Position numbers and translations under genes: made by a program. From an uncultured Aquimarina sp. (GTDB taxonomy: Bacteria > Bacteroidota > Bacteroidia > Flavobacteriales > Flavobacteriaceae), in assembly GCA_947498765.1 (NCBI GenBank), contig CANMLG010000016.1:186001-250000 (forward strand): a stretch of 64,000 bases of DNA, written 5' to 3'. The notes beneath the pieces were generated by a model. The model did not search any database, was not told the DNA's origin, and saw nothing but the letters and a program-made list of their open reading frames with translations. This document shows positions 742 through 43,906 of this stretch, in pieces. Position 1 is the stretch's first letter, and every line of letters begins with the position of its first letter.

Positions 742-3700
742 ATGATTTTCAAGAAATTAAGTTTGTATGCTTTAGCTTTTTTGGGTTCGGCAAGTTTTGC
801 TCAATCCAATTTTAATTACGCTGAGGCATTGCAAAAATCACTTTTCTTCTATGAAGTGCAGCAATCAGGGGAGCTGCCTTCTTGGAATCGTGTTACATGG
901 CGTGGAGATTCTGCGCTGGATGATGGTTCTGATGTTGGGGTGGATTTAACAGGAGGCTGGTATGATGCTGGTGACCATGTTAAATTCAATTTCCCAATGG
1001 CATTTAGTGTAACTGCACTTTCATGGGGTGCAATTGAATATGAGCAAGCCTATAAAGATGCTGGACAATTAGATATTATAAAAAGAAATATCAAATTTGC
1101 TACAGATTATTTATTAAAATGTCACACTGGTCCAACTGAGTTGTATGGGCAAGTTGGTAATGGTGGTTTAGATCATGCATATTGGGGTTCATCGGAAGTA
1201 ATGATAATGGATCGTCCAGCATATAAAATTACCGCATCAGCGCCTGGATCTGATTTAGCCGCAGAAACTGCAGCAGCTATGGCAGCCGCAAGTATTTTAT
1301 TTAAAGATTCGGATCCTGCTTACAGCGCTACCTTATTAGATCATGCAAAGCAATTATATAAGTTTGCTGATGATTATAGAGGTGTTTATTCTGAAGCAAT
1401 TACTGATGCAGCAGGTTTTTATAGATCTTTTAGTGGTTTCCAAGATGAAATAGTTTGGGGGGCAGCATGGTTATATAGAGCTACAAATGACGCTACTTAT
1501 TTAGCTAAAGCTGAATCTGAATATGATAACTTAGGTAATGAAGGTCAAAGCAACGATAAAGCTTATAAATGGGGACTGGCATGGGATGATAAATCTTATG
1601 GTTCTTATGTATTAATGTCTCAGTTAACCGGAGATGATAAATATAAAGCAGATGCAGAAAGACATTTAGACTATTGGACGGATGGAGTAAATGGAGACAG
1701 AGTTCCATATAGCCCAGGAGGACAAGCACATTTAACTCAATGGGGTTCATTGAGGCACTCTTCTAACACATCTTTATTAGCGTTTATTTATAGTGATAAG
1801 GTGGCTATATCTGCAGCCAAGAAATCAAAATATCATGATTTTGCAGTAAGACAGATAAATTATGCATTGGGAGACAATCCAATAAATAGAAGTTTCATGG
1901 TTGGATTTGGAAACAACCCAGCTAATAATACACATCATAGGGCGGCACATGGAGCTTGGGCTAATTCATTGCAAAATAGACCTGACAAACCTAGTCATAC
2001 GCTTTATGGAGCATTGGCAGGTGGGCCAAGTTCTCCAGATGACCAATTTGTGGATGATCGTGGTGATTTTATAGCAAATGAAGTTGCTTGTGATTATAAC
2101 GCTTGCTTTACAGGTGCTTTGGCACGAATGTATAGTGAATTCGGTGGTAGTACATTAGCTAATTTTCCAACAGAAGAAGTTCCAAGTAGAGCTGAAGTTA
2201 GGAGTTATTCTAAATTTAATAGTGATAACGCCTTTGGAAGTACGGTTAAAATATTGCTTCAGAACAGATCTGCATGGCCAGCTAGAGTAATGGATAAATT
2301 AAGCTACAGATATTATTTTGATATTGCAGAAGGCGTAGCAGCAGGAAAAACAATTGCTGATTATGATATACAATTAAACGGAGTAGGAGGTTCTGCAACA
2401 ATGTCAATTGAAAGTGCGGGAGGAACTCTTTATTATGCTGAAATTAGTAATATTCCTTCAATTTCTCCAATTGGAGATCCTGCATTTAGAAATGAAACAC
2501 AGATTAATTTCAGAGTATCAAATGGAGTGCCTTATGATACATCAAATGATCCTTCTGCAGCTGGTTTAAGTGGAGGAAGTGAAGTGGAAAGTGTGAATAT
2601 ACCTGTTTATGATAATGGAGTGTTAGTTTTTGGACAAGAGCCAGATGGTTCATCGGGGCCTATTACTCCGGTAAATACAGCTCCAATTGCTAGTATTTCT
2701 GCTGATAAATTCTCAGGGCAAACTCCATTAACGGTTACTTTTGATGGTAGTGGATCTTCTGATGCACAGAATGATGCATTGACTTATTTATGGGATTTTG
2801 GAAATGGAGAAACTTCAACGGATGAGAACCCTTCAACAATTTATACTACACCAGGTGCTTATCTAGTTAGTTTAGTAGTAAATGATGGTTTATTGAATTC
2901 AGCCGAAGAATCTATAACGATTACTGTAACTGAACCAATACTTAATCCAATACCTGTTGCAGGAGGAACTTTGAGTGGCGGTCCATTTAGTTTCACAGTT
3001 GGTGATGGAGTAGCAGATAATGTATCTGGCGTTACAGTTTCTGGTAACAGTGGAGCAACAAGTCAGTGGATAGTAACTGATGATGCAGGTATGATTTTAG
3101 GATTGCCTCCAGCACCTGAAGCAGTAGATTTTGATGGAGCAGGAGCAGGAACTTGCTTTATTTATAACGTAAGTTATAATGGAACAATAACAGGATTAAC
3201 ACCTAATTCAAATATTGCTAGTTTATCAGGGGATTTTGAATTATCATCAAATAGAATTGAAGTTATTCGTAATGCAACAGTAATTGTAGATCCAATTACA
3301 CCTATTGCAGTTGCAGGAGGAACTTTAAGTGGTGGTCCATTTACATTTACAGTAGGTGATGGAATAGCAGATAACGTGGCTGGAGTATCAGTTTCAGGGA
3401 ATAGCGGAACAACAAGTCAGTGGATAGTAACTGATGATGCTGGTATGATTTTAGGATTACCACCAGCACCCGAAGCAGTAAATTTTGATGGAGCAGGAGC
3501 AGGAACATGTTTTATTTACAGTGTAAGTTATAATGGAACATTAAATGGTTTAGCGGCTGACGCAAATATTTCTGGTTTGTCAGGTGATTTTGAATTGTCA
3601 TCAAACCGAGTTGAGGTTATTCGTAATGCAGTGATTGTAACTCCTAATCCAACAGGAGACTGTACTTTTGGAGCACCAATAGCTTCACCATTAGAAACTA

Positions 3701-6700
3701 CTTATGGTTATTATACAAATATGTATGCATTTGGAAGTAATGCACCAACAATGAATAATTTATCTGGTTTTTCATTTAACTGGGATTTAGCAAACAATGG
3801 TTTGTGGAGTATTGCTATTCAAACAACAGATGGAAATCCAGCATATTATGTAGATTTAAGAGATAAAACAACTCATAATTTAGGATCAAGTCAGCCCAGT
3901 ATTACATTTACAGGCACAGGTGTGCCAAATTTAGACGGTACATATTATACAGCTAAAGATGGAGATAATCTTGTTTTAGTATCTACAACAACAAATTATA
4001 GTCTTTATTTTTCAAATTCATCTACGGCACCTGATTGTGGAGAAACAGAAACTCCAATAACAGTTGATGGTGGTACTTTAGTAGGAGGACCATTCTCATT
4101 TACAGTAGGAGATGGTATTGCTGATAATGTATCAGGAGTAAGTGTTTCAGGAAATACAGGTTCTAATTTTGGATGGATAGTTACTGACGAAGATTTAAAT
4201 ATTTTAGGTTTACCTCCAACACCAGACGCTGTTAATTTTGACGAAGCAGGAGTAGGAGTTTGTTTGATATGGCATATTGCTTATGAAGATGGGCTTACTG
4301 GACTTACAGCAGGTGAAAACGCTGGGAATTTAGTAGGTAATTTTGATTTATCTAATAGTATCCGTGTAGATAGAACAGCTGGATTACCTTCAACAACTGT
4401 AGATGGAGGTACTTTAGTAGGAGGTCCATTTACATTTATAGTAGGTGATGGAGTAGCAGATAACGTATCTGGAGTAAGTGTTTCAGGAAATACAGGTGCT
4501 AATTTTGGATGGATAGTTACTGATGAAGATTTAAATATTTTAGGTTTACCACCAACACCAGAAGCAGTAGATTTTGATACAGCAGGCGAAGGCGTTTGTT
4601 TAATTTGGCATATTGCATACGAAGACGGACTGACAGGTCTTGCACAAGGTGGGAATGCAGGTAATTTGTCCGGAACATTTGATTTGTCAAATAGTGTTCG
4701 AGTTGAACGAAATGCTGAAATTCCAGTTCCTATTACTTTAATTGATGGGGCTACCGTGGCAACTTCAACGGGAGCCGTTGCTGTTGAAACTATTACTGGT
4801 GACGGTGTGGCTGACTTAGTTACATTTACAAATACAACAGCTGGTACTGCGGATTATGCGTACCTAATTACTGACGCTACTGGAAATATCCTAGTAGTTG
4901 AAACAGATTCACATGATTTTGAAGGAGCGTCTGTTGGTGTCTGTTTAGTGTACGGAATATCTTATACAGGGACTTTATCAGTAACAGGAAAAGCAATAAC
5001 TGATACTGACTTATCAACAGAATTATTTGCAGTATCTTCAAATTCAATTTCAGTGGATCGTAAAGATATTCCTGTTGTTGTTGATCCAGTTGACCCAGGT
5101 ACAGGAGGTTCAACTACCAATAAATACATAGAGCGTTTCACTGAAATGAGAAATGAGATCTATGATCCTGCAAATGGCTATTTTAGTGCGGATGGTTCTC
5201 CACATCACTCTGTGGAAACACTTATTGTTGAAGCTCCAGATCATGGGCATGAATCAACATCTGAATTGTACTCTTATTGGTTAATGATGGAGGCTATGCA
5301 AGGTCGTATTACTCAAGACTGGCAGCCATTAGCTAAAGTATGGAGTGAAATGGAAAGAATGATTATTCCAACTAAAGCTGATCAGCCTACAAACGCGGCT
5401 TATAATTCGTCAAGTCCAGCAGCATACGCAGCGGAATTTCCATTACCATCAGGATACCCAGCACCATTAGATTTTAATGCAGCAGTTGGTCAAGATCCTG
5501 TTTCAGATGAATTAACAGCAGCCTATGGACCAGAAGTGTATCAAATGCACTGGTTATTAGATAATGATAACTTTTATGGATATGGAAATAGAGGAGATGG
5601 AACAAGTACTCCTTCTTACATCAATACTTTCCAAAGAGGAGAACAAGAATCAGTTTATGAAACTATTCCTCATCCATCATGGGAATCATTTGAGTTTGGA
5701 AATTCAGAAAATGGATTCTTACCATTATTTATTTTAGATGCTAATTATGCTAAGCAATGGAGATATACAAGTGCTCCAGATGCAGATGCACGTGCAGTAC
5801 AAGCAATGTACTGGGCTATCCAATATGCAAAAGAGCAAGGAGGTGCAATTGATCAAACACTTTTAGATAATACTAAAAAAATGGGGGATTACTTGCGTTT
5901 AGCTATGTTTGATAAGTATTTCAAACAAATTGGTTCTCAAGATGAGCAAGGTAGTGCAGGTTCTGGATATGATAGTGCACATTACTTAATGTCATGGTAT
6001 ATGTCATGGGGAGGATCAGCTGATCCAGCTTCGGCATGGGCATTCCGTATTAGCTCAAGTCACTGTCATTTTGGATATCAAAACCCAATTGCAGCTTATG
6101 CATTAACTACTTTGGATGAGTTAGATCTTCAAACACCAAATGGGGAAAGAGACTGGACAACAAGTTTAGGTCGTCAAATGGAGTTTTACAGATATTTACA
6201 ATCAGCTGATGGTGCCATTGCAGGTGGTGCTACAAACAGTTGGAATGGTGATTATAGTACTTATCCAGCAGGTAAATCTACTTTCTATGATATGGCTTAT
6301 GATGATAATCCAGTATATCATGATCCAGGAAGTGGAACTTGGTTTGGATGGCAAGCTTGGTCAGTGGAGCGTGTAGCAGAATACTATTACATTACCAATG
6401 ACCCGTTAGCTAAAGAAATTATGGACAAGTGGGTTGCATGGGTAAAGCCTAATGTGAACTTAATAGGAAGTGATGATTTCGAAATTCCAGCAACTTTAGA
6501 GTGGACTGGAGAACCAGATACGTGGAATGCATCTAGTCCTGGCGCAAATGCTAATTTACGTGTAGCTGTAACTAACTTTAATAGAGATTTAGGTATTGCA
6601 TCTTCATTAGCTAAAACGCTAACGTATTATGCTGCTGCAACACAAAAACATGATACGCTAGATGAAGAAGCTAAAAACTTAGCAAAAGAAATCTTAGATA

Positions 6701-7284
6701 GAATGTGGGTTACTTACCGTGATGAAAAAGGGGTTTCTTCTCCAGAATCACGTGGTGATTATGCGCGTATGTTTGAAGAGGTTGTTCATGTACCAGCTGG
6801 TTACACAGGAACAATGGCTAATGGTGATGAAATTAAAACAGGAGTTACTTTCTTAGATATTCGTTCTGGTTTACAGGATGATCCAGAATTTCCTGCTTTA
6901 AAAGCAGCTTATGATGCAGGTGAAGACTATACAACTAGGTATCACAGAACTTGGGCTCAAATGGAAACTGCTTTAGCTAATGCAGAATATGGATTCTTCT
7001 TCGGTGAAGACGATGCTTCTACAGGTGCTAAGTCATTAGATGTTGAGTTAACTGTATATCCTAATCCAGCTACAGAAGCTGTTACAGTAACTTACCCAAC
7101 AGAGGATGATATTGCTTTACAAGTGACTTTAGTAGATTTTGTTGGAAGAGTTATAACAAGTCAAGAGTTAGTTGATGATAAGTCAATAACAATTGATGTT
7201 AGTAACTTGGCTACTGGAATGTATATAGTTCGTTTAGAAACTAAAGGAAATGTAATACGTACAGAAAAGCTTATTATAGAATAA
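742..7284 (+). CDS. T9SS-secreted multidomain cellulase: GH9-CBM3-PKD-repeats-GH48
   Basis: This 2180-residue protein is predicted to hydrolyse cellulose outside the cell with an endo/processive GH9 and a cellobiose-releasing GH48 in one chain. Order: signal peptide 1-20 (cut after ASFA), GH9 about 23-470, CBM3c-like module about 482-635, PKD about 644-732, flavobacterial beta repeats at about 739-846, 857-964, 1107-1213, 1220-1327 and 1333-1443, an unassigned Cys-bounded module about 973-1100, GH48 about 1458-2089, T9SS type A tail about 2099-2180. GH9 catalytic residues are visible as D75 and D78 in WYDAGDH and E447 in ANEVACDYNA. The GH48 acid is E1508 in HGHESTSE, matching E55 of Cel48F. 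The layout resembles Caldicellulosiruptor CelA, whose central CBM3b modules are replaced here. GH48 is uncommon in Bacteroidota, so domain transfer is likely. The gene stands alone, with no SusCD beside it. Confidence 0.95.
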   Translation: MIFKKLSLYALAFLGSASFAQSNFNYAEALQKSLFFYEVQQSGELPSWNRVTWRGDSALDDGSDVGVDLTGGWYDAGDHVKFNFPMAFSVTALSWGAIEYEQAYKDAGQLDIIKRNIKFATDYLLKCHTGPTELYGQVGNGGLDHAYWGSSEVMIMDRPAYKITASAPGSDLAAETAAAMAAASILFKDSDPAYSATLLDHAKQLYKFADDYRGVYSEAITDAAGFYRSFSGFQDEIVWGAAWLYRATNDATYLAKAESEYDNLGNEGQSNDKAYKWGLAWDDKSYGSYVLMSQLTGDDKYKADAERHLDYWTDGVNGDRVPYSPGGQAHLTQWGSLRHSSNTSLLAFIYSDKVAISAAKKSKYHDFAVRQINYALGDNPINRSFMVGFGNNPANNTHHRAAHGAWANSLQNRPDKPSHTLYGALAGGPSSPDDQFVDDRGDFIANEVACDYNACFTGALARMYSEFGGSTLANFPTEEVPSRAEVRSYSKFNSDNAFGSTVKILLQNRSAWPARVMDKLSYRYYFDIAEGVAAGKTIADYDIQLNGVGGSATMSIESAGGTLYYAEISNIPSISPIGDPAFRNETQINFRVSNGVPYDTSNDPSAAGLSGGSEVESVNIPVYDNGVLVFGQEPDGSSGPITPVNTAPIASISADKFSGQTPLTVTFDGSGSSDAQNDALTYLWDFGNGETSTDENPSTIYTTPGAYLVSLVVNDGLLNSAEESITITVTEPILNPIPVAGGTLSGGPFSFTVGDGVADNVSGVTVSGNSGATSQWIVTDDAGMILGLPPAPEAVDFDGAGAGTCFIYNVSYNGTITGLTPNSNIASLSGDFELSSNRIEVIRNATVIVDPITPIAVAGGTLSGGPFTFTVGDGIADNVAGVSVSGNSGTTSQWIVTDDAGMILGLPPAPEAVNFDGAGAGTCFIYSVSYNGTLNGLAADANISGLSGDFELSSNRVEVIRNAVIVTPNPTGDCTFGAPIASPLETTYGYYTNMYAFGSNAPTMNNLSGFSFNWDLANNGLWSIAIQTTDGNPAYYVDLRDKTTHNLGSSQPSITFTGTGVPNLDGTYYTAKDGDNLVLVSTTTNYSLYFSNSSTAPDCGETETPITVDGGTLVGGPFSFTVGDGIADNVSGVSVSGNTGSNFGWIVTDEDLNILGLPPTPDAVNFDEAGVGVCLIWHIAYEDGLTGLTAGENAGNLVGNFDLSNSIRVDRTAGLPSTTVDGGTLVGGPFTFIVGDGVADNVSGVSVSGNTGANFGWIVTDEDLNILGLPPTPEAVDFDTAGEGVCLIWHIAYEDGLTGLAQGGNAGNLSGTFDLSNSVRVERNAEIPVPITLIDGATVATSTGAVAVETITGDGVADLVTFTNTTAGTADYAYLITDATGNILVVETDSHDFEGASVGVCLVYGISYTGTLSVTGKAITDTDLSTELFAVSSNSISVDRKDIPVVVDPVDPGTGGSTTNKYIERFTEMRNEIYDPANGYFSADGSPHHSVETLIVEAPDHGHESTSELYSYWLMMEAMQGRITQDWQPLAKVWSEMERMIIPTKADQPTNAAYNSSSPAAYAAEFPLPSGYPAPLDFNAAVGQDPVSDELTAAYGPEVYQMHWLLDNDNFYGYGNRGDGTSTPSYINTFQRGEQESVYETIPHPSWESFEFGNSENGFLPLFILDANYAKQWRYTSAPDADARAVQAMYWAIQYAKEQGGAIDQTLLDNTKKMGDYLRLAMFDKYFKQIGSQDEQGSAGSGYDSAHYLMSWYMSWGGSADPASAWAFRISSSHCHFGYQNPIAAYALTTLDELDLQTPNGERDWTTSLGRQMEFYRYLQSADGAIAGGATNSWNGDYSTYPAGKSTFYDMAYDDNPVYHDPGSGTWFGWQAWSVERVAEYYYITNDPLAKEIMDKWVAWVKPNVNLIGSDDFEIPATLEWTGEPDTWNASSPGANANLRVAVTNFNRDLGIASSLAKTLTYYAAATQKHDTLDEEAKNLAKEILDRMWVTYRDEKGVSSPESRGDYARMFEEVVHVPAGYTGTMANGDEIKTGVTFLDIRSGLQDDPEFPALKAAYDAGEDYTTRYHRTWAQMETALANAEYGFFFGEDDASTGAKSLDVELTVYPNPATEAVTVTYPTEDDIALQVTLVDFVGRVITSQELVDDKSITIDVSNLATGMYIVRLETKGNVIRTEKLIIE
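2956..5073 (+). repeat. Imperfect beta-domain repeats between GH9 and GH48
   Basis: Five copies of a roughly 107-residue module lie here. Copies 1 and 2 (from about 2956 and 3310) share GGTLSGGPF, VSGNSG and ILGLPPAPEAV. Copies 3 and 4 (from about 4063 and 4399) share GGTLVGGPF, FGWIVTDEDLNILGLPP and the ending SNS-RV-R. Copy 5 (from about 4738) is diverged. A different Cys-bounded module at about 3658-4041 separates copies 2 and 3. The family recurs in flavobacterial surface proteins. A spacer, adhesion or glycan-binding role is inference. Confidence 0.8.
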
Positions 7285-23464: not shown

Positions 23465-24302
23465 TTACTACATTTTTGTTTGTTTTGTTGAGAAATAACG
23501 TATTATTCGCAAATAGTTTTTAAAAAGTAGCAGGAGAAGCATCTAATTAAATAGAAAGTAAAAAATAAATCAACCTATTTAAATGAAATACCAACAGACA
23601 AATCGTATAAATTGAAATCAGGTTTAGATAAACTTAAAAATCATTAGTTTAATAAATTATTTCTAAAAGTCGTTTGTATAATTGTAGAAATGCGATTTTA
23701 AATAAGATGTTATTGCTGTGAAGCATAATAAATATGCTCTTTTTTTAAAATATCAACTAAGGTTTTACTACAGCTCTTTTTTTATTAATTTAATTAAGTG
23801 TATGCTATAACGTTATAGGTTGTTGTTTGGTGTTTAAATTATTGACTGTTAAAGCGTTAAATATATATTTTTTTTATGCTATATAATTTAATTTAAAATC
23901 CATATGTCTGTGTTTTGGGTGTTAATGTCGATGTTTTTAATGATGTAGTTTTAAATGATTCACTTAATTTGTTCTTGTAAGGTATTGATTTTTAATTTGT
24001 TTTTTTGATTTTTAATTTATAAGTGAAATTTATATTGAATGTTTTGTTGTAAAAAATATGTAGGAAGCGTCTTATTTTGTTTTTCATTTGCGGTTTATTT
24101 GTTAGGTTTATCGACTTAAATATCCTTTTGACAAATTGGTGAAAACAAATGTGTTTTTTTGTAAAATATATAGGTTATCTCAGCGTTTTGCAAAGGGTTT
24201 TTTGATGTTATATAACGACTGAATCAAGGAATTATAATGGCGACAAGTTGCAATGTGTTTTGTGATAGAGTCATTAAAGGAAGAAAAATAAAGAGAAGGC
24301 TT
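23465..24302. other. Long AT-rich intergenic region
   Basis: No supportable gene lies in these 838 bases. A weak hairpin with a T tract at about 23722-23746 (AGCATA/TATGCT stem) may end the sigma operon. A perfect 14-base palindrome CTATAACGTTATAG lies at 23805-23818. The rest appears to be leader sequence for the large surface protein gene. Confidence 0.55.
23805..23818. promoter_or_regulatory. Perfect 14-base palindrome
   Basis: CTATAACGTTATAG reads the same on both strands and is surrounded by T-rich non-coding DNA. It may be an operator. I saw no second perfect copy. Confidence 0.3.
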
Positions 24303-27300
24303 ATGATTAAGAAAATTATTTTTGGTTACATAATATTATTTTTTGTAACTGTTTTTAGCTCTTACGCGCAGCTTTCAATTGTACCAGATAGTGGACCGCC
24401 TAATCGAATATGTGCAGGTGCTGCTGAAACACTTAGAATTTCAGATGCATTAGATCCAAATGATTTAATAGAATGGAGATTGTTTCCTGATACAATTGGA
24501 GTTATTAAAAGTGCTTTGGTTAGTGCAGGAGGAGATTTTTTTGATATTAATGGTGTTGGTGGATTTCCTGTTGCAGCTAGGACCACTTTTAGAGCAACTC
24601 GAAATGGTAATGCATCCGATTTTGGTCAAATTCTTATGGAAGTTGATGGTACAGTTTCAATATTGCCTATGGATGCAGGTACTGGAGGAAATATATCATT
24701 GTGTGGTAACTCCAATGGCGATCCTATTGACTTATTAGCATTTACAGGAGGTGATGCAGGAGGAACATGGACACCAGCGCTGTTTACAGGAACAAATATT
24801 TTTACAGTAGGAATTGATGCAGCCACTATATATACATATAGTTTTCCACCAACAGGTACAGGTCCATGTGCAAGTCCAGGTTCTTCGGCAACCATTGTAG
24901 TAGGTGTTTGTCCTGATGTAGATACAGATGGTGATGGAATCAATAATGATGTAGATACTGATGATGATAATGACGGGATATCAGATATAGAAGAAGAATC
25001 TTTGTGTGCAGCTTCAGGTTTAACAGAAACGGCACCAATTGTTGATGTAGATTTTGGGGTTTTTGTAGGGCCAGCACCAGAATCAGCTTCGAGTGACCCC
25101 AATGTTTTAGGACATACATTTGTTAATCAACCACCAATTGGAGGACAATATGCTGTAGCTACATCTAGTTTTTTAGATCAAGGATTAGGTGCTGTGGCAA
25201 CATTTTTTGCATCTACAAATGCTATAGGTAATGTGGATGCAGACGGTAATGCTAATGGTCGCTTTTTATCTATGAATATTAGACAAAATTTTATTGGACA
25301 AGTAATCTATAATTTACCGAGTGTACCAGTAGTAGGTGGTAAACAATATATTTTTAGGATTGATTTGGCAGGTTTATGTGATGGATGTCCTAATTTACCT
25401 ATAATCGATTTAGAAATTAAAGATGCTGGAGGAGCTGTATTGGCAAATGCTACTTCAGCAACATTAGGAATTGCAAATGATGATGTTTGGCGTGAGGTGC
25501 GTTTGGATTTTACTCCTGCAGCCTCAAGTTTAGTTACATTATCTATTATTAATAGCCAGCCATTAGATGATAACGGAAATGATTTGGGTATCGATAATAT
25601 ACGTTTTTCATTATTAGAATGTGATTTTGACAAAGATGGAATTCCGAATTCATTAGATATTGATACAGATAATGATGGTATTTTAGATAGTATAGAAGGA
25701 GTACCCAATTATGCAGATATCGATTCGGATGATGATGGTATACCAGATAATATTGAAGCGCAATTTACAGCACGTTATTTCCCTCCTTTAGGCACAGATA
25801 TTGATGGAGATGGATTAGATGATGCTTATGATGGAGTGGGAAGTCCAGGAATTATACCAACAGATACGGATAGTGATAGTATTCCAGATTATGTAGATAC
25901 AAATTCAGATGATGATTGTAACGATGATAATATTGAAGCCTATGATACAGATTCAGATGGGGTATCTAATATATTACCAACAGGAGGTGATACAGATGGA
26001 GATGGCTTGTTAGATGTTTTTGATACCATTGTATTAGAATCGGCAACATCGGGAATAAATTCGTCAAATGGAACAACGCCTTTAAGTTTTCCAGATATAA
26101 AAATACCAGGTGGAGATAGAGATTGGAGAGAGTTTGATCTTGATGCGGGAACACTTTCAGGTAACCAAGATATATGTGTAGGAGGAACAACAACTTTTAT
26201 GTCTACATTGTCTGGAGGAACATGGGTATCTTCTGATTTTGCGATTGCTACTGTAGATGCTTCAGGGGTTGTAACAGGAGTGAGTGAAGGTGTGGCTAGT
26301 ATTATTTATACATTGTGTCCGGGAGTAACAGTTAGAAGAGGAGTTAGGGTTGGAAGTGGAGAAGATGCAGGGGTTTTGTCCGGTACACAAGAGGTTTGTG
26401 TGGGAAACACGACTATATTTAATTCAACAATACCAGGGGGTACATGGAGTTCATCAAATTCTGCTATTGCTACAGTAGATGCAGCTTCAGGAACCGTTTC
26501 TGGAGTAGCACCAGGTGGTCCTGTGCTTATTACTTATACCGTTACAAGTACAGCAGGCTGTACACCAGGGATAGCAGATAGAGAAGTTACGGTATCAGGA
26601 AGCCCAAATGCAGGTACCTTGGCAGGTACACAGGAGGTATGTATTGGGGATATGGTTACATTTACATCCAGTGTAGCAGGAGGAGTTTGGAGTTCATCAA
26701 ATAGCACTATAGCGACAGTCGACTCCGCGACAGGAGTAATTACTGGGGTGTTAGTGGGAACAACTACTATTGAATATAGAGTTGCTGGTTCAGGGGGGTG
26801 TACCGATGAAGTGGCTCAAAGGAATATTACCGTAAATGAAGCTCCCGATCCTGGAATTATAAGTGGAGCGGACAGAGTGTGTGAAACCAGAACAGTCACT
26901 TTTACTTCTACAGAGCTAGGTGGAGTTTGGAGTTCCGATGATCCATTAATAGCAACAGTAGATCCTAGTTCGGGTGTTGTTACAGGTGTGGCATTAGGTA
27001 CTACTACAATTCGCTATACATTTACAGCTGTTAATAGTTGTGGAGGCAGTGAAACTACAAAAGATATTACTGTAGATATTATTCCTGATGCAGGCATGGT
27101 ATCTGGAGGAGATCAAATTTGTGTGGGTAATTCTACAATTTTTTCATCAACAGAACCTGGAGGAACTTGGAGTTCTGATGATCCTACTATTGCAACGGTT
27201 GATTCAGTTACTGGAGAAGTAACAGGTGTTGCCAATGGGAGTGTAACAATTTTTTATACTATTGCTAGTTCAGGTCCTTGTGGTAGTGATCAAGCTTCAA

Positions 27301-29477
27301 AAATAATTACAGTAAGCTTAATTCGTTCTTTACCTGGTACATTATCAGGGGAACAATTAATTTGTGTCGGAGGTACAACAACATTTCAATCGACTAGATC
27401 GGGAGGGGCATGGAGTACAGGTGATGCTTCAATAGCAACAGTGGATCCTGTAACAGGAGTAGTAACTGGAGTAAGTAGAGGTTCAATTCAAATTACGTAT
27501 ACAGTTCCAGGTTTTGGAACTACCTGTGCTGCAGGAAGTACAACAAGAGATGTAATTGTTGAAGATTTATCAGAACCAGATGTTACGCTTTCTACTCGTT
27601 TTGGAATAACCGAAACTTGTGTAAACAATGAACCACCAATTATACTATTGTCTTCTGTGGCAGGTGGAACATGGATCTCTGGCGATACAAGTATAGCTAT
27701 TGTTAATGCAACAACAGGAACTTTTACACCTGTGGGACCAGGTTTAGTAAGCATATCTTATACAGTAAGTAGAAATGGGTGTGAAATGGCAGTAACAAAA
27801 ACTATAGATATTGTAGTAAATGCAGTGCCTAATCCGGGTATGATTGATGGAGATCAAATGATTTGTGAAGGAGATGCAGTTTTATTTACTTCTGATGGAG
27901 ATCCAGGAACATGGAATTCGTTGGATAGATCAATAGCTACGGTGGATAATAGTGGAAATGTAGTAGGGGTCTCAGGAGGGAGTACAACTATAGAATATAC
28001 TGTTGTAGGTTCTGGAAGTTGTGCTGCAGCTACGGTTACTCGAGGAATTACTGTAGAACCCACACCAGATGCAGGTACTTTACCTGTTGGAGCAAGTGTA
28101 TGTGTGGATGGTTCAATTACATTATCAATAGGTGGAGGTGACACTGGGGGAACATGGACCTCATTAAATGAATCTATTGCTACAATTGATGCCATTACTG
28201 GAGAAATAACTGGAATTTCTGCAGGTATAGCAGGGATTTTGTATGAAGTCAATCCTTCTGGTGATTGTGAGGCTATTGCAAATACAGATATTATTGTAGA
28301 CGAACCTATAGATGCAGGTACCTTATCTGGTGAACAAATTATTTGTTTAGGTAATACCACTACATTTACACCCGAACTTGGTTTTACTGGAGGAATATGG
28401 CAATCATTAAACCCTAGTATCGCAACCGTTGACACAAATGGGGTAATTACAGGAGTTAGCTTTGGAACTGCTGTAATTGAATATACTTTGGTTAATCCAG
28501 GACCATGTGGAAATGCTATGACAACAAGAACAGTTACTGTATCTGTACCGCCAGCAGATCCAATTATTAATGATATAGAGACTTGTGAAGGTGAATTAGC
28601 ACCTATACTAAGAGCTGGAATAGCAGATGGGTTGTCAGCTAATTGGTTTGATAGTGATGGAACAACACTTCTGTTAGCAAATAGTGATGAGTTTATTCCT
28701 ATTTTTTCAGGCTTAGGAATTTTTGATTATTTTGTGCAATCATTTAATCCTGTAACAGGATGCGAAAGTGAGTTGATTCCTTTTAGTGTTACTATTTTTG
28801 AAGCACCAAATGCAGGTACTGGAGGTACGCTTAGTCTTTGTCAAGGAGAAACGTTAACCATTAGTATGTTGGATAATTTTTTAATTGGAGCAGATGTTTC
28901 TGGAGTTTGGAGTCCACCAGTTGCTGGAGCAGGTATTTATACTTATACGGTTGATCCAATAAGCACTGCATGTTTGGCATCTGTATCTCAGGTTATTGTG
29001 TTAGAAACGCCATCTCCATCTGGAACAACAGTAACTACGGGTGATAGGAGTGCTACTATTAATACACGTTTTGGGTCAAACTTAGAATACACTGTTGAAC
29101 TACAAGATGGCGGTACTGTTGGTCCTCAATCGTCAAATGTATTTACAGATTTACCTTTAGGTGTACATACAGCTGTTGTTAATAATAGTTGCGCTCCTCC
29201 GGATATTGTGCCTTTTGATTTATTTGGTTTTCCAAAATTCTTTAGCCCAAATAATGATGGAATACATGACACGTGGAATGTAGAAGGTGTTCGAACTGAT
29301 GATTTTTTAATTACAATATTTGATCGCTATGGTAGATTAATGACTTCATTTAGACCTTTAAGTAGAGGTTGGAATGGGACATATAATGATATTCATATGC
29401 CAGCCGATGATTATTGGTATGTAGCCGTTCGCGATAATGGAGAAGAATTTAAAGGACATTTTGCATTGTTGAGATAA
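24303..29477 (+). CDS. T9SS type B surface protein with Big_2 repeats and CHU_C tail
   Basis: This protein of 1724 residues has a signal peptide (MIKKIIFGYIILFF..., cut after SSYA). The ATG at 24303 is preferred over the one at 24237, which would put 22 charged residues before the signal. Acidic calcium-binding TSP3-like repeats (DxDxDGxxN, DTDDDNDG) occupy parts of about 205-610 around a jelly-roll-like domain. Ten Ig-like Big_2 repeats span about 614-1417; most share the start AG-LSG-Q-ICVG and the phrase SSxxxIATVDxxxGxVTGV. Two more Ig-like domains follow. The CHU_C gliding-motility tail (about 1641-1724) carries FSPNNDGIHDTW and FDRYGR, the type B T9SS signal. It is probably a long adhesin or mobile surface filament protein; the ligand is unknown. 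Confidence 0.88.
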   Translation: MIKKIIFGYIILFFVTVFSSYAQLSIVPDSGPPNRICAGAAETLRISDALDPNDLIEWRLFPDTIGVIKSALVSAGGDFFDINGVGGFPVAARTTFRATRNGNASDFGQILMEVDGTVSILPMDAGTGGNISLCGNSNGDPIDLLAFTGGDAGGTWTPALFTGTNIFTVGIDAATIYTYSFPPTGTGPCASPGSSATIVVGVCPDVDTDGDGINNDVDTDDDNDGISDIEEESLCAASGLTETAPIVDVDFGVFVGPAPESASSDPNVLGHTFVNQPPIGGQYAVATSSFLDQGLGAVATFFASTNAIGNVDADGNANGRFLSMNIRQNFIGQVIYNLPSVPVVGGKQYIFRIDLAGLCDGCPNLPIIDLEIKDAGGAVLANATSATLGIANDDVWREVRLDFTPAASSLVTLSIINSQPLDDNGNDLGIDNIRFSLLECDFDKDGIPNSLDIDTDNDGILDSIEGVPNYADIDSDDDGIPDNIEAQFTARYFPPLGTDIDGDGLDDAYDGVGSPGIIPTDTDSDSIPDYVDTNSDDDCNDDNIEAYDTDSDGVSNILPTGGDTDGDGLLDVFDTIVLESATSGINSSNGTTPLSFPDIKIPGGDRDWREFDLDAGTLSGNQDICVGGTTTFMSTLSGGTWVSSDFAIATVDASGVVTGVSEGVASIIYTLCPGVTVRRGVRVGSGEDAGVLSGTQEVCVGNTTIFNSTIPGGTWSSSNSAIATVDAASGTVSGVAPGGPVLITYTVTSTAGCTPGIADREVTVSGSPNAGTLAGTQEVCIGDMVTFTSSVAGGVWSSSNSTIATVDSATGVITGVLVGTTTIEYRVAGSGGCTDEVAQRNITVNEAPDPGIISGADRVCETRTVTFTSTELGGVWSSDDPLIATVDPSSGVVTGVALGTTTIRYTFTAVNSCGGSETTKDITVDIIPDAGMVSGGDQICVGNSTIFSSTEPGGTWSSDDPTIATVDSVTGEVTGVANGSVTIFYTIASSGPCGSDQASKIITVSLIRSLPGTLSGEQLICVGGTTTFQSTRSGGAWSTGDASIATVDPVTGVVTGVSRGSIQITYTVPGFGTTCAAGSTTRDVIVEDLSEPDVTLSTRFGITETCVNNEPPIILLSSVAGGTWISGDTSIAIVNATTGTFTPVGPGLVSISYTVSRNGCEMAVTKTIDIVVNAVPNPGMIDGDQMICEGDAVLFTSDGDPGTWNSLDRSIATVDNSGNVVGVSGGSTTIEYTVVGSGSCAAATVTRGITVEPTPDAGTLPVGASVCVDGSITLSIGGGDTGGTWTSLNESIATIDAITGEITGISAGIAGILYEVNPSGDCEAIANTDIIVDEPIDAGTLSGEQIICLGNTTTFTPELGFTGGIWQSLNPSIATVDTNGVITGVSFGTAVIEYTLVNPGPCGNAMTTRTVTVSVPPADPIINDIETCEGELAPILRAGIADGLSANWFDSDGTTLLLANSDEFIPIFSGLGIFDYFVQSFNPVTGCESELIPFSVTIFEAPNAGTGGTLSLCQGETLTISMLDNFLIGADVSGVWSPPVAGAGIYTYTVDPISTACLASVSQVIVLETPSPSGTTVTTGDRSATINTRFGSNLEYTVELQDGGTVGPQSSNVFTDLPLGVHTAVVNNSCAPPDIVPFDLFGFPKFFSPNNDGIHDTWNVEGVRTDDFLITIFDRYGRLMTSFRPLSRGWNGTYNDIHMPADDYWYVAVRDNGEEFKGHFALLR
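26142..28551 (+). repeat. Ten Big_2 Ig-like repeats within the surface protein
   Basis: Repeats of roughly 80 residues (about 240 bases) recur in frame. Each has a Cys in the (I/V)CVG phrase, a tryptophan in GGTWSS and the signature IATVD. The copies are diverged at DNA level, which points to old duplications rather than recent expansion. Confidence 0.8.
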
Positions 29478-31011: not shown

Positions 31012-32901
31012 ATGTATTCAATTTTTTTTAAAATAAGATTTTTGCTTGTGTTAACTATTATTCAATTAATAATAAGTTGTTCTGCAAAAAGAATAGAAAC
31101 ATTTGATCATTTTATTACTACACGAAAAGCGATGTTGTTTGATGGAGAAAAAGAATTTAGATTTTTGTCTTATAATGTGCCTACACTTAATTATGTGGAA
31201 GATAATATGGAATTTGAACAAACAAATCCTTATGGGCTTCCTACGGAATTTGAGTTAAGAGATGTGTTTAAAACCTTAAATCAGATAGGGGGTAATGTGG
31301 TTAGAGCTTATACTATACCTGTGCGTAATGAGAAATTTCCCAAAAAAGCAATTACTTATGTAGAGGGGCCAGGTCAATTCAATGAACAAGCTTTTAAATC
31401 AATGGATACTATGTTGGCATTAGCATCTGAGTATAAAATTAGAGTAATTATTCCTTTGGTTAATAATTGGGAATGGATGGGAGGTAGACCTAATTATGCC
31501 AAATTTAGAAATAGAGATAAAGATGATTTTTGGACGGATCCAGAGTTAATAGCAGATTTTAAAAAAACAATTGAATATGTATTAAACAGAACTAATTCAG
31601 TTACAGGAATTAAATATAAAAACGATAAAGCGATTATGGCTTGGGAGTCTGGTAATGAATTGCAGAATCCTGATTATTGGGCAATCGATATAGCTAAGTT
31701 TATAAAAAGTATTGATAAGAATCATCTATTTATAGATGGCTTTTTTGCTATTCATGGCGATGATAATTATAAAAGTGTTTTTGTTAAAGAATATTCAATT
31801 AATGAACCTGCAATAGATATTATTAGTACACATCACTATGAACCTACTTCTCAAAAAATGATTACTAATCTTAAAAAAACAGTGGATATGATTGGAGGTA
31901 AGAAACCCTTATTAATAGGGGAATTTGGATTTATAGGCACTTCGGGGATGAATCAAGTATTGGATTATGTGATTAATGAAAAAAGAATAGCAGGAGGTCT
32001 TATTTGGAGTTTAAGAAGGCATAATAAGAAAGGTGGTTTTTATCAACACACTGAGCCATTTGGAGGTGGTTTGTATAGGGCTTATCATTGGCCAGGTTTT
32101 AGTGAAGGAATCTTATATGATGAAACAAATACAATGAGACTATTCCGAAAAAAATCTTTTGAAATAATGAAAAAAAGAGAACCAAAAATAATTGCTCCAG
32201 ATCCTCCAAAGATTTTGAATTTTAAGGATACGCCTCAATTTAGTTGGCAAGGTTCGGCGGGTGCAAGTGGATATAATATTGAAAGAAGTTTTTCTAAAAA
32301 AGGACCCTGGAAGCTTATTAAATATAATATAGATGATATTGATACTCCAGGTTTTGATTTGTTTAGTGACCAAGATGTTCAAATAGGGAAATCATATTAT
32401 TATCGAATGCAAGCAATTAATGAGGGGGGAATATCCAAACCTTCAAATATAATTGGACCCATTAAGGTTGATTTTTTAACTAAGGTAGATTATGCTAAAA
32501 ACTTAATGCTTTTAGAAAAACATAAAGGCTTAAAAATAAAAAAAGGAGACTATAGATCTTTTAAAGAAGCTTATTCTCGTATTAATGGGAATAAAGGAAG
32601 TGAAGGAGTTTATGTAGTTCCAATGGAATTTAAAGAATTTCGTTTATATAGTTATGAATCTTCAAAAATACCTAATATTTCATTTTTGATTTCTGAAAAT
32701 GGAATACAATATTCAAAGTTTGATTTTGAAGTAAATGAATATAAATCAAAAGAAGATAATTATAATTATTTAGTGCCTAGAAAATACGTAATAAAGAATG
32801 CTAAATTTTTAGCTAATGATAGTATAAAAAAAATTAAATACATAAAATTTATGGCAGGAGACAACATTGATATTGTTAGGGCAGAGTTAACATATCAATA
32901 A
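31012..32901 (+). CDS. GH5-type (clan GH-A) surface lipoprotein glycosidase, probable beta-mannanase
   Basis: This 629-residue predicted lipoprotein (LIISC, C23) should face the cell surface. The catalytic TIM barrel spans about 35-390. The acid/base is E216 in AWESGNEL and the nucleophile E304 in LLIGEFGF, both in the positions expected for clan A. A fibronectin-III-like domain follows (about 400-480, SWQGSAGASGYNIERS), then a C-terminal beta region without a recognised family. The mannan context (GH26, GH130, epimerase) suggests beta-mannan as the substrate. The subfamily is not clear to me; an exo-acting mannosidase or mannobiohydrolase is an alternative. The gene converges on the AraC regulator with a two-base gap. 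Confidence 0.82.
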   Translation: MYSIFFKIRFLLVLTIIQLIISCSAKRIETFDHFITTRKAMLFDGEKEFRFLSYNVPTLNYVEDNMEFEQTNPYGLPTEFELRDVFKTLNQIGGNVVRAYTIPVRNEKFPKKAITYVEGPGQFNEQAFKSMDTMLALASEYKIRVIIPLVNNWEWMGGRPNYAKFRNRDKDDFWTDPELIADFKKTIEYVLNRTNSVTGIKYKNDKAIMAWESGNELQNPDYWAIDIAKFIKSIDKNHLFIDGFFAIHGDDNYKSVFVKEYSINEPAIDIISTHHYEPTSQKMITNLKKTVDMIGGKKPLLIGEFGFIGTSGMNQVLDYVINEKRIAGGLIWSLRRHNKKGGFYQHTEPFGGGLYRAYHWPGFSEGILYDETNTMRLFRKKSFEIMKKREPKIIAPDPPKILNFKDTPQFSWQGSAGASGYNIERSFSKKGPWKLIKYNIDDIDTPGFDLFSDQDVQIGKSYYYRMQAINEGGISKPSNIIGPIKVDFLTKVDYAKNLMLLEKHKGLKIKKGDYRSFKEAYSRINGNKGSEGVYVVPMEFKEFRLYSYESSKIPNISFLISENGIQYSKFDFEVNEYKSKEDNYNYLVPRKYVIKNAKFLANDSIKKIKYIKFMAGDNIDIVRAELTYQ

Positions 32902-32903
32902 AA

Positions 32904-33785
32904 TTATAAAATACGTTTTATACCTAAAAACTCTTTTCTATATTCAGTAGGAGTACAACCTTTATTTTTTTTAAATCTTCGATTAAAATTTGCAATGCTA
33001 TTAAAGCCACATTGGTAGGCGATTTCAGAGATACTTTGGTCTTTTTCAATTAGTGATCGAGTAGCATAACCGATTCTTAAATCATTAAGGTAATCAACAA
33101 AGGTTTTTCCAGTACTTTTCTTTATAAATCGACTAAAGGAACCTGTGCTCATATTTAATAATTGACAAGCATCGGAAATTTGAATTTTGGATCCATAATT
33201 TTTTTGTAAATAAATGGCCAGTCTATTTAACTTTTGATTGTGTTCAAAGCTTTCTGGCTCTACAGTTGAATTCGACAGTGTCTTTTGTTCAGTAGATATG
33301 GATAAGTCATATAGTATGGAAAAGATTTCCATAAAATAATCAATACCATCAATTTTTGAAAGTTTACAAATTCTTGGCTCCATTTTTAAGCAAGTAGCTT
33401 CAGAAAAAGCAATGCCGTGGTTTGCTCTTTTAAACATATCTCTTATAGGTTTTAAAATGGCTCTTTCTAACAATTCATGCTGAAATAAATTATTCGAAAA
33501 TTGAATAGTAATTTCATGCATTTGTTTTTTTGGAGCTTTATGTTGCTCCCAACAATGGTATAAATTTGGACCTACTAGTACAAGTTCTTTATCACTTATT
33601 TCTTCCATACTATCACCAACAACTCGCCGTAAACCTTTTCCACTTGAAATATAATTGAGTTCAATTTCGGGGTGGTAATGAATAGGGAAGTCAAAATAAT
33701 CTTTTTGCCTATCAAAAACTAAAAAACTATCATTTTCGGTCATTTGCATAATTTCCTGTTGTGGCTTTTGGTAGGAATGTTTCAT
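32904..33785 (-). CDS. AraC family transcriptional regulator of the mannan locus
   Basis: This 293-residue regulator has an N-terminal cupin-like sugar-sensing domain (about 25-110, FPIHYHPEIELNYI and GPNLYHCWE) and a C-terminal double helix-turn-helix (about 190-290, DACQLLNMSTGSFSRFIKK and SISEIAYQCGFNSIANFNRRFKK). It lies inside the mannan locus, divergent from the GH26 gene, so local activation in response to a mannan-derived sugar is the natural inference. It replaces the hybrid two-component system common in Bacteroides glycan loci. A soluble sugar is the likely effector because the protein has no membrane segment. Confidence 0.9.
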   Translation of the reverse strand: MKHSYQKPQQEIMQMTENDSFLVFDRQKDYFDFPIHYHPEIELNYISSGKGLRRVVGDSMEEISDKELVLVGPNLYHCWEQHKAPKKQMHEITIQFSNNLFQHELLERAILKPIRDMFKRANHGIAFSEATCLKMEPRICKLSKIDGIDYFMEIFSILYDLSISTEQKTLSNSTVEPESFEHNQKLNRLAIYLQKNYGSKIQISDACQLLNMSTGSFSRFIKKSTGKTFVDYLNDLRIGYATRSLIEKDQSISEIAYQCGFNSIANFNRRFKKNKGCTPTEYRKEFLGIKRIL

Positions 33786-33811
33786 ATTAATATTTGTTTT
33801 TGGTAGAATAG

Positions 33812-33845
33812 TATCAATGTAACGCTATAGGTATTGATATCTTTG
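33812..33845. promoter_or_regulatory. Inverted repeat and -7 box between AraC and GH26 genes
   Basis: TATCAAT (33812-33818) and ATTGATA (33833-33839) form an inverted repeat with 14 bases between arms. A TATCTTTG -7-type box (33838-33845) overlaps the right arm and reads toward the GH26 gene. This fits a regulator site touching the promoter. Confidence 0.4.
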
Positions 33846-33938
33846 TAATATAGTAATTTTTTAAAAAAATAATAAAATAAAATAAAAATATGTTATTTTT
33901 TTGATGTTTTGTTGAGTTATTGTTAATTGTAGTGGTAT

Positions 33939-35078
33939 ATGAATTTTGTTTTTAAACTAAATCGATTATTAAAACTAGGGATATATGTAATAATAATACT
34001 ATTACAGTTTTCGTGTGTGAGTGCGTTAAAAAAAGAATCAAAAAAAATAGTTTTAGCAGATCAAAACGCTAGTAAGTCAACTAGATATTTAATGGCTCGT
34101 ATAAAAGAATTACCTAAAAAAGGTTATGCTTTTGGTCAGCAAGATGCTACGGCTTATGGAGTGCACTGGAAAAATAAGGGAACAGACTATAAAAGTGATG
34201 TTAATGATGTAACCGGAGATTTTCCAGGAGTGTATGGTTTTGAATTGGGACACTTGGAATTAGGAGCTCAAGTAAATTTGGATTCAGTGAATTTTAAATT
34301 AATGAATAAACTGATTCAAAAGGCTGATCGTGATCGAGGTATTATCACTATTAGTTGGCACCCTGATAATCCAGTGACTTTAAAAAATGCTTGGGATCCT
34401 ACAGCTGCTGTGTCAACAATTATTGAAGGAGGTGTGTTACATTTAAAATATAAAGCTTGGTTGCGTAAAGTGGCCAATTTTTTAAATGAATTAAAAACAA
34501 AATCAGGAAAAAAAATACCCGTAGTTTTTCGACCATTTCATGAAATGAATGGTTCATGGTTTTGGTGGGGAGCAAAGAGTTGTACACCCAGCGAGTTTAA
34601 AAGTTTATGGCAACAAACATTTAATATACTTACTAAACAATATAAGGTAAACAATGCTATTTTTTGCTATTCAACGGATCAAATTACCAGTCAAGAAGAA
34701 TATTTACGCTTTTACCCAGGCGATGCATACGTAGATGTGCTAGGCATTGATTTATATCATAAAAGTACAACAGAAAATTATATAGAAGTTTTAAATACAA
34801 ATATTGATGTACTTGCAGCTATAGCCCATAGCAAAGGCAAACCTTTTGCATTATCCGAGGGGGGGCTTGAAAAAATACCAATTAAAAATTGGTGGACACA
34901 AGTGTTGGATAAAAACATTGCAAGTAAAGGTTTGTCATGGGCTTTGGTGTGGCGTAATGCCTGGGAAAATCATCATTATGTGCCTTATGACAAAAAGCAA
35001 GTAAGTTTTCAAGATTTTGTAAAGTTTAAAAATTTAGAGCATGTTTTGTTTCTAAAAGATTTAAAAAAAATAAAATAG
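33939..35078 (+). CDS. GH26 endo-beta-1,4-mannanase lipoprotein
   Basis: This 379-residue predicted lipoprotein (LLQFSC, C26) is a GH26 mannanase that cuts beta-mannan backbones at the cell surface or in the periplasm. Family motifs are clear: GYAFGQQDATAYG, ISWHPDNP, RPFHEMNGSWFWWG with acid/base E202, and ALSEGGLE with nucleophile E307. The length is that of a single-domain enzyme with no binding module. It is the first gene of the plus-strand run GH26, symporter, GH130, and is divergent from the AraC regulator. Confidence 0.95.
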   Translation: MNFVFKLNRLLKLGIYVIIILLQFSCVSALKKESKKIVLADQNASKSTRYLMARIKELPKKGYAFGQQDATAYGVHWKNKGTDYKSDVNDVTGDFPGVYGFELGHLELGAQVNLDSVNFKLMNKLIQKADRDRGIITISWHPDNPVTLKNAWDPTAAVSTIIEGGVLHLKYKAWLRKVANFLNELKTKSGKKIPVVFRPFHEMNGSWFWWGAKSCTPSEFKSLWQQTFNILTKQYKVNNAIFCYSTDQITSQEEYLRFYPGDAYVDVLGIDLYHKSTTENYIEVLNTNIDVLAAIAHSKGKPFALSEGGLEKIPIKNWWTQVLDKNIASKGLSWALVWRNAWENHHYVPYDKKQVSFQDFVKFKNLEHVLFLKDLKKIK

Positions 35079-35139
35079 CAATTAAGTGTATTGCTCAGGT
35101 TTTTAAGTAGTAATAAATATTTAATTCAAATAATAGACA

Positions 35140-36537: not shown

Positions 36538-36585
36538 TAATAAGAGTAACAAACGGAGTTGTTTAGATATAATTAATAGTCTTTT

Positions 36586-37761: not shown

Positions 37762-38050
37762 TCTTTTCCTTCTAGGGAATTGAAATTAATTTTTTATTAA
37801 ATAACAAATAAACACGAAAATGTTATTGTTTGTAATATGGTTTTTATTTGTTGTTTGTTATGTTTTTTGTGACTTATAGTTAGTAAAATAAAAAATAAGG
37901 ATATTATTTTAATAATAATACAAATAAATGACAGAATAGTCTTAGTGTGTAGGTTGTTGATTAATTAATTTTGAGTACTAGGCTAAAGTAAATTACAAGT
38001 GACTTGATCAGGTTTTTAATAGAATAAAATAACTAAATATAATATCAAAT

Positions 38051-41200: not shown

Positions 41201-41211
41201 ACATAGAAAAG

Positions 41212-42774: not shown

Positions 42775-42781
42775 TATAAAA

Positions 42782-43858: not shown

Positions 43859-43906
43859 ATAGTCAGATCGTGTATAAATTGCTTTTTAGGATTAAAAAAA
43901 ATAATT

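What the first reader, a model, noticed from the sequence alone, without database searches (positions are those of the whole stretch)
742..7284. CelA-like GH9/GH48 cellulase fused to a T9SS signal in a flavobacterium
One unbroken frame carries GH9 with a CBM3c-like module at the N-terminus and GH48 at the C-terminus, the two catalytic ends of Caldicellulosiruptor CelA, but with PKD and flavobacterial beta repeats in the middle and a type A sorting tail. Catalytic residues are intact in both (D75, D78, E447; E1508). GH48 is known mainly from Firmicutes and Actinobacteria and well-studied cellulolytic Bacteroidota such as Cytophaga lack it. A processive two-headed cellulase exported by T9SS would be a new way for this phylum to attack crystalline cellulose.
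Basis: partly seen in the sequence, partly recalled or inferred. Interest (0 to 1): 0.92.

Follow-up and report, generated by a model that had tools for sequence, protein, structure and literature searches.

The report
Two-headed flavobacterial cellulase with swappable head
One gene of a flavobacterium encodes a single protein with two cellulase domains, GH9 at the front and GH48 at the back; on the family tree of its relatives the front domain has switched between two types at least ten times while the back domain stayed, so it is likely a secreted enzyme for crystalline cellulose whose front head would be exchanged by recombination.

Summary
In detail: window 742-7284 is one 2180-aa frame, GH9 + CBM3c, PKD, five Ig-like repeats, GH48 and a T9SS type A tail, with both active sites intact. 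The architecture is not unique: GH48 sits in 33 of 66 genus genomes (29 as GH9-GH48) and in Tenacibaculum, Flammeovirga, Reichenbachiella and Flavivirga, yet it is rare in family and phylum samples. I found no description in the open-access papers searched. The GH48 half does not descend from Caldicellulosiruptor CelA (AU p 0.00035). The stronger finding lies outside the given coordinates: the GH9+CBM3c half comes in two types, about 53% identical, swapped under near-identical GH48 (two independent pairs, 99.5-99.7% GH48), with 13 switches on the tree, at least 10 forced by supported branches. The types differ in the loop that closes the GH9 cleft (164 of 164 versus 0 of 47). In one genome tandem GH9 and GH9-GH48 genes share an exact 1189-bp tract. 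Activity and secretion are inferred.

The parts
742..7284 (+). whole gene, 2180 aa: GH9-CBM3c-PKD-Ig-Ig-CBM113-Ig-Ig-Ig-GH48-T9SS type A tail
742..801 (+). putative N-terminal signal peptide, residues 1-20
   Evidence: read by eye from the translation; no predictor was run
817..2121 (+). GH9 catalytic domain (type I), residues 26-460; D75, D78, E447
1525..1563 (+). segment D262-A274 that holds the cleft-closing loop of GH9-CBM3c enzymes; absent in type II GH9
   Evidence: role of the loop from PMC4579020 and PMC6032398 passages
2173..2643 (+). CBM3c-like module fused to GH9 (about residues 478-634)
   Evidence: Pfam CBM_3 494-568; full-length alignment with 1js4 to residue 634
2674..2928 (+). 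PKD domain, residues 645-729; the swap boundary seen in relatives lies at the CBM3c/PKD junction
2956..3279 (+). Ig-like repeat 1
3310..3633 (+). Ig-like repeat 2
3661..4035 (+). CBM113 (UKD) domain, residues 974-1098; cellulose face W1022, Y1035, Y1036
4063..4383 (+). Ig-like repeat 3
4399..4719 (+). Ig-like repeat 4
4741..5070 (+). Ig-like repeat 5 (divergent, 34% identical to repeat 1)
5125..7002 (+). GH48 catalytic domain, residues 1462-2087; E1497, E1508, D1680
7054..7278 (+). type A T9SS sorting domain, residues 2105-2179

Best explanation
The gene encodes a single GH9-CBM3c/CBM113/GH48 protein that is likely exported by the type IX secretion system and would cut crystalline cellulose with two cooperating heads, and in its relatives the GH9 half has switched type at least ten times under a conserved GH48 half, most likely by recombination with neighbouring GH9 genes. 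Shown by sequence: the modules, the intact active sites, the T9SS tail and a SprA translocon gene in the same genome, the two GH9 types, their reciprocal placement in tandem genes of two genomes, and an exact 1189-bp shared tract in one genome. Inferred: the CBM113 docks the enzyme on cellulose; the type I GH9, with a closed cleft end, acts as a processive endoglucanase; GH48 acts as a cellobiohydrolase; the Ig-like repeats are spacers; exchange of the GH9 head tunes processive (type I) against open-cleft (type II) attack; recombination through the PKD-CBM113 tracts is the route of exchange.
For: Modules and residues. T9SS: 123 tail matches at E <= 0.01 in the genome and SprA. Same genome: a T9SS-tailed AA10 LPMO with two CBM113 and a second GH9 (type II) with CBM113. 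CBM113 cellulose positions aromatic in 236, 236 and 239 of 240 copies, near-duplicates included. Swap: 68 fused rows split into 43 type I, 23 type II and 2 other. Different-type pairs stay at 49-61% GH9 identity however similar the GH48 is; the 3 row pairs with GH48 above 95% (two independent pairs, as A. spongiae is in twice) have 53.2-53.7%, while 30 same-type pairs at that level have a median of 96.9%. Identity jumps to 98-100% at the CBM3c/PKD junction. 13 switches on the GH48 tree, at least 10 forced by starred branches, bootstrap 12-13. G778 and G828 carry the two types in opposite order in tandem genes; exact 1189-bp tract in G828. Loop segment 9-13 residues in 164 of 164 type I, 4-6 in 47 of 47 type II.
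Against: No activity, binding or secretion was measured. In genomes with both a fused and another typed GH9 the types are opposite in 7 of 17 and the same in 10, so the other GH9 is not always the reciprocal copy. The types are still clustered on the GH48 tree (13 changes against a shuffled mean of about 20.5), so switches are recurrent but not rampant. The exact tract was seen in one genome only; the comparable tract in G778 is 75.5% identical, and near-exact repeats can be assembly faults. Each of the two closest swap pairs includes a protein without a named source or DNA held here (P0009, P0022). The window's own gene has no GH9 gene beside it; its second GH9 is on another contig, so no exchange is shown for this gene itself.
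Confidence: 0.73

Rival explanations
1. The two GH9 types are old paralogous fused genes; each lineage kept one and lost the other, with no exchange of modules.
For: Some genomes hold both types (7 of the 17 with a fused and another typed GH9), so duplication plus loss is part of the history; the types are clustered on the tree.
Against: It cannot give 99.5-99.7% identical GH48 and downstream linker joined to 53% identical GH9 with a sharp boundary at CBM3c/PKD, unless the rest was homogenised, which is itself recombination. 13 switches on the GH48 tree.
Confidence: 0.12
2. The protein descends from a Caldicellulosiruptor-type CelA gene acquired by a flavobacterium and given a T9SS tail.
For: Same order GH9-CBM3c ... 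GH48, and high GH48 similarity to the C. bescii GH48 chains (841-843 bits; their organism is recalled, and P0297 bears that name).
Against: GH48 scores higher to 4fus (877 bits; Hahella chejuensis, recalled and by the name of P0280) and nests among T9SS-tailed Bacteroidota GH48, many unfused; holding 10 fused Bacteroidota rows with the C. bescii GH48 costs 109 log units, AU p 0.00035; the middle has CBM113, not CBM3b; adjacent-gene versions exist in Tenacibaculum, Aquimarina and Flavivirga. Only the GH48 half was tested, and the rows were chosen after the first tree.
Confidence: 0.05
3. The GH48 acts on chitin or another polymer rather than cellulose.
For: PMC10113389 files the GH48 of three Fulvivirga species under chitin; GH48 chitinases are known in beetles (recalled).
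Against: It is fused to a GH9-CBM3c cellulase and to CBM113 with a conserved cellulose face, and lies near GH5 cellulases with CBM113 in relatives; the nearest solved structures are mostly named cellulases.
Confidence: 0.07
4. It is an inactive or non-secreted relic.
For: No expression data were examined.
Against: Open frame, all aligned catalytic residues conserved, kept in many species.
Confidence: 0.03

Closest known systems
CelA of Caldicellulosiruptor bescii (GH9-CBM3c-CBM3b-CBM3b-GH48) and the glucan degradation locus around it
   Same: N-terminal GH9-CBM3c and C-terminal GH48 in one secreted chain; and, as in CelA versus CelC, the same GH48 part is found with different N-terminal catalytic heads (PMC6892212: GH9-CBM3c replaced by GH10 with identical GH48; PMC7142884: expansion of the locus proposed by recombination after duplication; passages seen)
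   Different: CBM113 and Ig-like repeats instead of CBM3b; T9SS tail; GH48 half of separate descent; the exchange here is between two GH9 types (at least 10 switches), and once with GH5 (P0024/G559)
CelAly of Aquimarina sp. 2-A2 (GH5-PL31 with UKD/CBM113, PMC13235733)
   Same: multimodular T9SS enzyme of Aquimarina with a CBM113 and Ig-like modules
   Different: catalytic domains GH5 and PL31; the window's CBM113 keeps the cellulose-binding aromatics but 1 of 3 reported alginate residues
Thermobifida fusca Cel9A (E4), GH9-CBM3c processive endoglucanase
   Same: best solved match to the GH9-CBM3c half, 724 bits; cleft loop present
   Different: no GH48 head and no T9SS tail
GH48 of Hahella chejuensis (4fus; organism from the name of P0280)
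   Same: best solved match to the GH48 half, 877 bits
   Different: GH48 without GH9; the database protein P0280 carries a CBM2 (PF00553)
Separate T9SS-tailed GH9 and GH48 genes of Flavivirga, Tenacibaculum sp. M341 and two Aquimarina-genus genomes (G806, G789)
   Same: same domains with CBM113, as adjacent genes
   Different: two proteins, each with its own T9SS tail

Membership tests
GH48 (PF02011) | full-length family profile above the curated cut-off | tested here: met
   929 bits over 1-619/619, cut-off 25
GH48 (PF02011) | catalytic acid and proposed base (Cel48F E55, E44, D230; numbers recalled) | tested here: met
   E1508, E1497, D1680 by alignment; unchanged in 284 of 284 rows
GH48 (PF02011) | exo-acting cellulase activity | not testable with these tools
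   needs assay
GH9-CBM3c processive endoglucanases (Cel9A/Cel9G/Cel9I type) | GH9 plus CBM3c with catalytic D, D, E | tested here: met
GH9-CBM3c processive endoglucanases (Cel9A/Cel9G/Cel9I type) | loop that blocks one end of the cleft | tested here: met
   13-residue segment D262-A274; type II relatives lack it
GH9-CBM3c processive endoglucanases (Cel9A/Cel9G/Cel9I type) | processive action on cellulose | not testable with these tools
   needs assay
CelA (Caldicellulosiruptor two-headed cellulase) | GH9-CBM3c at the N-terminus and GH48 at the C-terminus | tested here: met
CelA (Caldicellulosiruptor two-headed cellulase) | CBM3b modules between the heads | tested here: not met
   one CBM_3 match only, directly after GH9; the middle holds PKD, Ig-like repeats and CBM113
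CelA (Caldicellulosiruptor two-headed cellulase) | common descent with CelA | tested here: not met
   GH48 half, AU p 0.00035; the GH9 half was not tested against CelA
CBM113 (UKD) | sequence homology to the founding domain 9kvn | tested here: met
   E 1.4e-26 over the full domain
CBM113 (UKD) | planar aromatic cellulose-binding residues Tyr50, Tyr63, Tyr64 | tested here: met
   W1022, Y1035, Y1036, all aromatic
CBM113 (UKD) | alginate-binding residues Arg36, Lys100, Lys110 | tested here: not met
   S1008, K1072, T1082: one of three
T9SS type A cargo | C-terminal type A sorting domain in a genome with the T9SS translocon | tested here: met
   (SprA_N); other T9SS genes were not searched
T9SS type A cargo | N-terminal signal peptide | tested here: inconclusive
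   hydrophobic start read by eye; no predictor available
T9SS type A cargo | tail-dependent export to the surface or medium | not testable with these tools
   needs secretion mutant

The most novel reading that the evidence does not exclude
Marine Bacteroidota carry a natural head-exchange system for two-headed cellulases: a conserved CBM113-GH48-T9SS chassis receives alternative N-terminal cassettes (closed-cleft GH9 type I, open-cleft GH9 type II, or GH5) by recombination through shared PKD-CBM113 tracts of neighbouring cellulase genes, so strains of one species switch between processive and open-cleft attack while keeping the same exo-cellulase, independently reinventing CelA and its locus.
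Probability: 0.5. Interest if true: 0.85.

Novelty: new variant of a known kind. Interest (0 to 1): 0.72.

Why it matters
[quoted passage not shown] Here is a clade of Bacteroidota with GH48 tethered to a processive-type GH9 and a T9SS tail, in a genome that also has an LPMO with the same binding module. The near-identical pairs that differ only in the GH9 head are ready-made natural experiments: they allow the effect of a closed-cleft versus open-cleft GH9 on a fixed GH48 chassis to be measured directly, and they show which junctions nature uses to swap cellulase heads.

Tried and rejected

Rows dropped before counts. GH48 tree: 284 domain rows clustered at 80% to 137, 45 names removed by hand and 13 named rows added back, giving 105. 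Switch count: 119 rows at 66% or more GH48 identity to the window, thinned to 86 (same type and 98.5% or more GH48 identity removed), less 20 without a GH9 in the piece held, giving 66. Loop count: 231 unique GH9 domains, of which 20 were neither type I nor type II and are left out (segment 4-16 residues); 'type I' there means over 60% identity to a type I reference, so it takes in stand-alone GH9 outside the fused family. Pair counts and residue counts include near-duplicate rows (a gene held both as protein and as locus). Typing in the genus fetched the places above about 340 bits except G559:C45; the weaker GH9 (about 300 bits and below) were not typed.

Papers: PMC13235733 outline, abstract, section 18 and passages; PMC10113389, PMC6247017, PMC5831590, PMC4928363, PMC7142884, PMC6892212, PMC10535946, PMC6032398, PMC4579020, PMC5651568 passages only; all others search listings only. 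'Not in print' rests on (30 of 128 papers listed; 40 of 52; 7 of 7; 2 of 2; 4 of 4; 2 of 2; 7 of 7; 1 of 1) in an open-access library; subscription papers were not searched.
Full report
THE OBJECT. Its GH48 is 96, 94 and 97% identical (best segment) to those of Aquimarina agarivorans, A. agarilytica and an uncultured Aquimarina isolate, so I take the genus to be Aquimarina. Pfam gives GH9 (26-460), CBM_3 (494-568), PKD (645-729), GH48 (1462-2087) and a Por secretion tail (2105-2179), all above cut-off. The GH9-CBM3c half aligns over its full length with T. fusca Cel9A and the GH48 half with GH48 cellulases. Active-site residues are intact and unchanged in 226 of 226 GH9 and 284 of 284 GH48 rows, near-duplicates included.

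Residues 974-1098 match the UKD domain of CelAly (9kvn, E 1.4e-26), founding member of CBM113 (PMC13235733, passage), which binds insoluble cellulose and alginate (section 18). The cellulose-binding positions Tyr50, Tyr63, Tyr64 are W1022, Y1035, Y1036 here and aromatic in 236, 236 and 239 of 240 copies in the pooled proteins. The alginate positions Arg36, Lys100, Lys110 are S, K, T here; in the pool they are R in 33, K in 17 and K in 171 of 240. I infer a cellulose-directed module. The 'beta repeats' are five copies of about 108 residues, predicted at pLDDT 96 as a beta-sandwich that resembles many Ig-like domains, probably spacers.

THE REST OF THE SYSTEM. The genome has 123 matches to the type A sorting tail at E <= 0.01 and SprA. 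It has one AA10 LPMO with two CBM113 and a T9SS tail, a second GH9-CBM3-CBM113-T9SS protein, eight GH5-family matches and no GH94 match. CBM113 occurs at five places: the window gene, the LPMO (two), the second GH9, and a 401-aa protein with weak metallopeptidase matches.

DISTRIBUTION. GH48 is rare in the phylum sample (3 of 395 genomes over the cut-off, one more below it; this genome included) and in the family sample (5 of 397), but is in 33 of 66 genomes of the genus. Of 120 listed homologues (225 found) 52 read GH9..GH48..T9SS tail, 51 of them with CBM113; names include Tenacibaculum, Flammeovirga, Reichenbachiella and Flavivirga. So the architecture is widespread and auto-annotated. Eight paper searches, two of them with capped lists, gave no description of it; they gave Fulvivirga GH48 counts filed under chitin (PMC10113389) and the statement that a rumen Bacteroidetes genome, like others, has no GH6 or GH48 (PMC5831590).

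ORIGIN. In the GH48 tree the window lies in a clade of T9SS-tailed Bacteroidota GH48, fused and unfused mixed, while the C. bescii GH48 (P0297) sits with Clostridium (mixture-model tree). Forcing 10 fused Bacteroidota rows together with it against 11 other rows costs 109 log units, AU p 0.00035; the rows were picked after the first tree. GH9 and GH48 are found in the reverse order in 11 of 120 rows, for example Acetivibrio cellulolyticus, and in the same order without a T9SS tail in 16. The pairing has probably arisen more than once.

FUSED VERSUS ADJACENT. In Tenacibaculum sp. M341 the GH9 protein (residues 1-931) and the GH48 protein (30-1001) align with residues 1-931 and 1273-2233 of the fused T. 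agarivorans protein at 85% and 76%. Where the fused protein has three Ig-like repeats, the adjacent genes have the first T9SS tail, a stop, a 70-bp gap and the second signal peptide. The direction, fusion or fission, is not settled.

THE SWAP. Among 68 fused T9SS rows the GH9 half is of two types, 43 type I (the window's), 23 type II, 2 other. Thirty same-type pairs with GH48 above 95% have a median GH9 identity of 96.9% (range 75.7-100). The 3 different-type row pairs at that level, which are two independent pairs, have 53.2-53.7%: A. spongiae and P0009 (GH48 99.5%), A. acroporae and P0022 (99.7%). Signal peptides are alike, the difference spans GH9 and CBM3c, and identity jumps to 98-100% at the start of the PKD. 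On a GH48 tree of 66 fused rows the type changes 13 times, at least 10 forced by supported branches, 12-13 in bootstrap trees; shuffled labels need about 20.5, so types are inherited between switches.

MECHANISM CLUE. G778 has a tandem of type I GH9 then type II GH9-GH48; its near relative G828 has type II GH9 then type I GH9-GH48. Like types across positions are about 90% identical, unlike types at the same position about 50%. In G828 the two genes share an exact 1189-bp tract, 99.67% over 1203 bp, covering the PKD-CBM113 stretch, while the GH9 parts are 64% identical in DNA. A crossover there would put the other GH9 on the GH48 chassis; that step is inferred. In G778 the same tract is only 75.5% identical. 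In the 17 genus genomes with a fused and another typed GH9 the types are opposite in 7 and the same in 10.

WHAT IS SWAPPED. Type I keeps the loop that in GH9-CBM3c structures blocks one end of the cleft (residues 243-254 of Cel9I, PMC4579020); [quoted passage not shown] fusca E4 (PMC6032398). 164 of 164 type I domains have at least 9 residues in the segment, 47 of 47 type II have 4-6; 20 domains of neither type were set aside. I infer that type I is processive and type II more open. Whether this changes activity is untested.

COMPARISON. It works like CelA, and the locus behaves like the Caldicellulosiruptor glucan degradation locus, where the same GH48 carries different N-terminal heads (PMC6892212, PMC7142884, passages). 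It is not a member of that family by descent. The novelty lies in the T9SS/CBM113 chassis and the recurrent head exchange.

Noticed in passing
window 31012-46222: SusC/SusD pair with a GH5-family and a GH26 protein and a fasciclin-domain protein: probably a mannan utilisation locus, unrelated to the GH9-GH48 gene.
   Followed up: partly
window 24237-29477 (+): 1746-aa protein with nine Big_2 Ig-like matches and a T9SS type B (CHU_C) tail, adhesin-like.
   Followed up: no
window 47738-54382 (-): 2214-aa T9SS type A protein with He_PIG, Big_5 and a sub-threshold GSDH match; catalytic function unclear.
   Followed up: no
L082:2392-3597 (own genome, contig C9): 401-aa protein with weak metallopeptidase matches ending in a CBM113, beside the second GH9 gene: a CBM113 on what may be a non-carbohydrase.
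   Followed up: no
L136 (G559:C38) and P0024: A head with a GH5 match (in P0024) instead of GH9 in front of the same CBM113-GH48-T9SS part, with a separate GH9-CBM113-T9SS gene next to it.
   Followed up: partly
L120 (G800:C28): 1967-aa GH9-CBM113-T9SS protein without GH48, GH9 64% to type II and 60% to type I: perhaps a third type.
   Followed up: no
G789:C36:4698-5141 (L150): two short pieces of GH9 (profile 1-84 and 295-364), apparently a remnant of a further GH9 gene.
   Followed up: no
L010, L085, L086 (next gene) and L020 (second gene on): a GH5 cellulase with CBM113 and T9SS tail lies just after the GH48: a conserved cellulase cluster in relatives that is dispersed in the window's genome.
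   Followed up: partly
plasmid record CP012860.1 (Persicobacter sp. JZB09), 177304-178832: a GH48-like stretch on an 859-kb plasmid record, 66% identical in DNA to the window's GH48 region.
   Followed up: no
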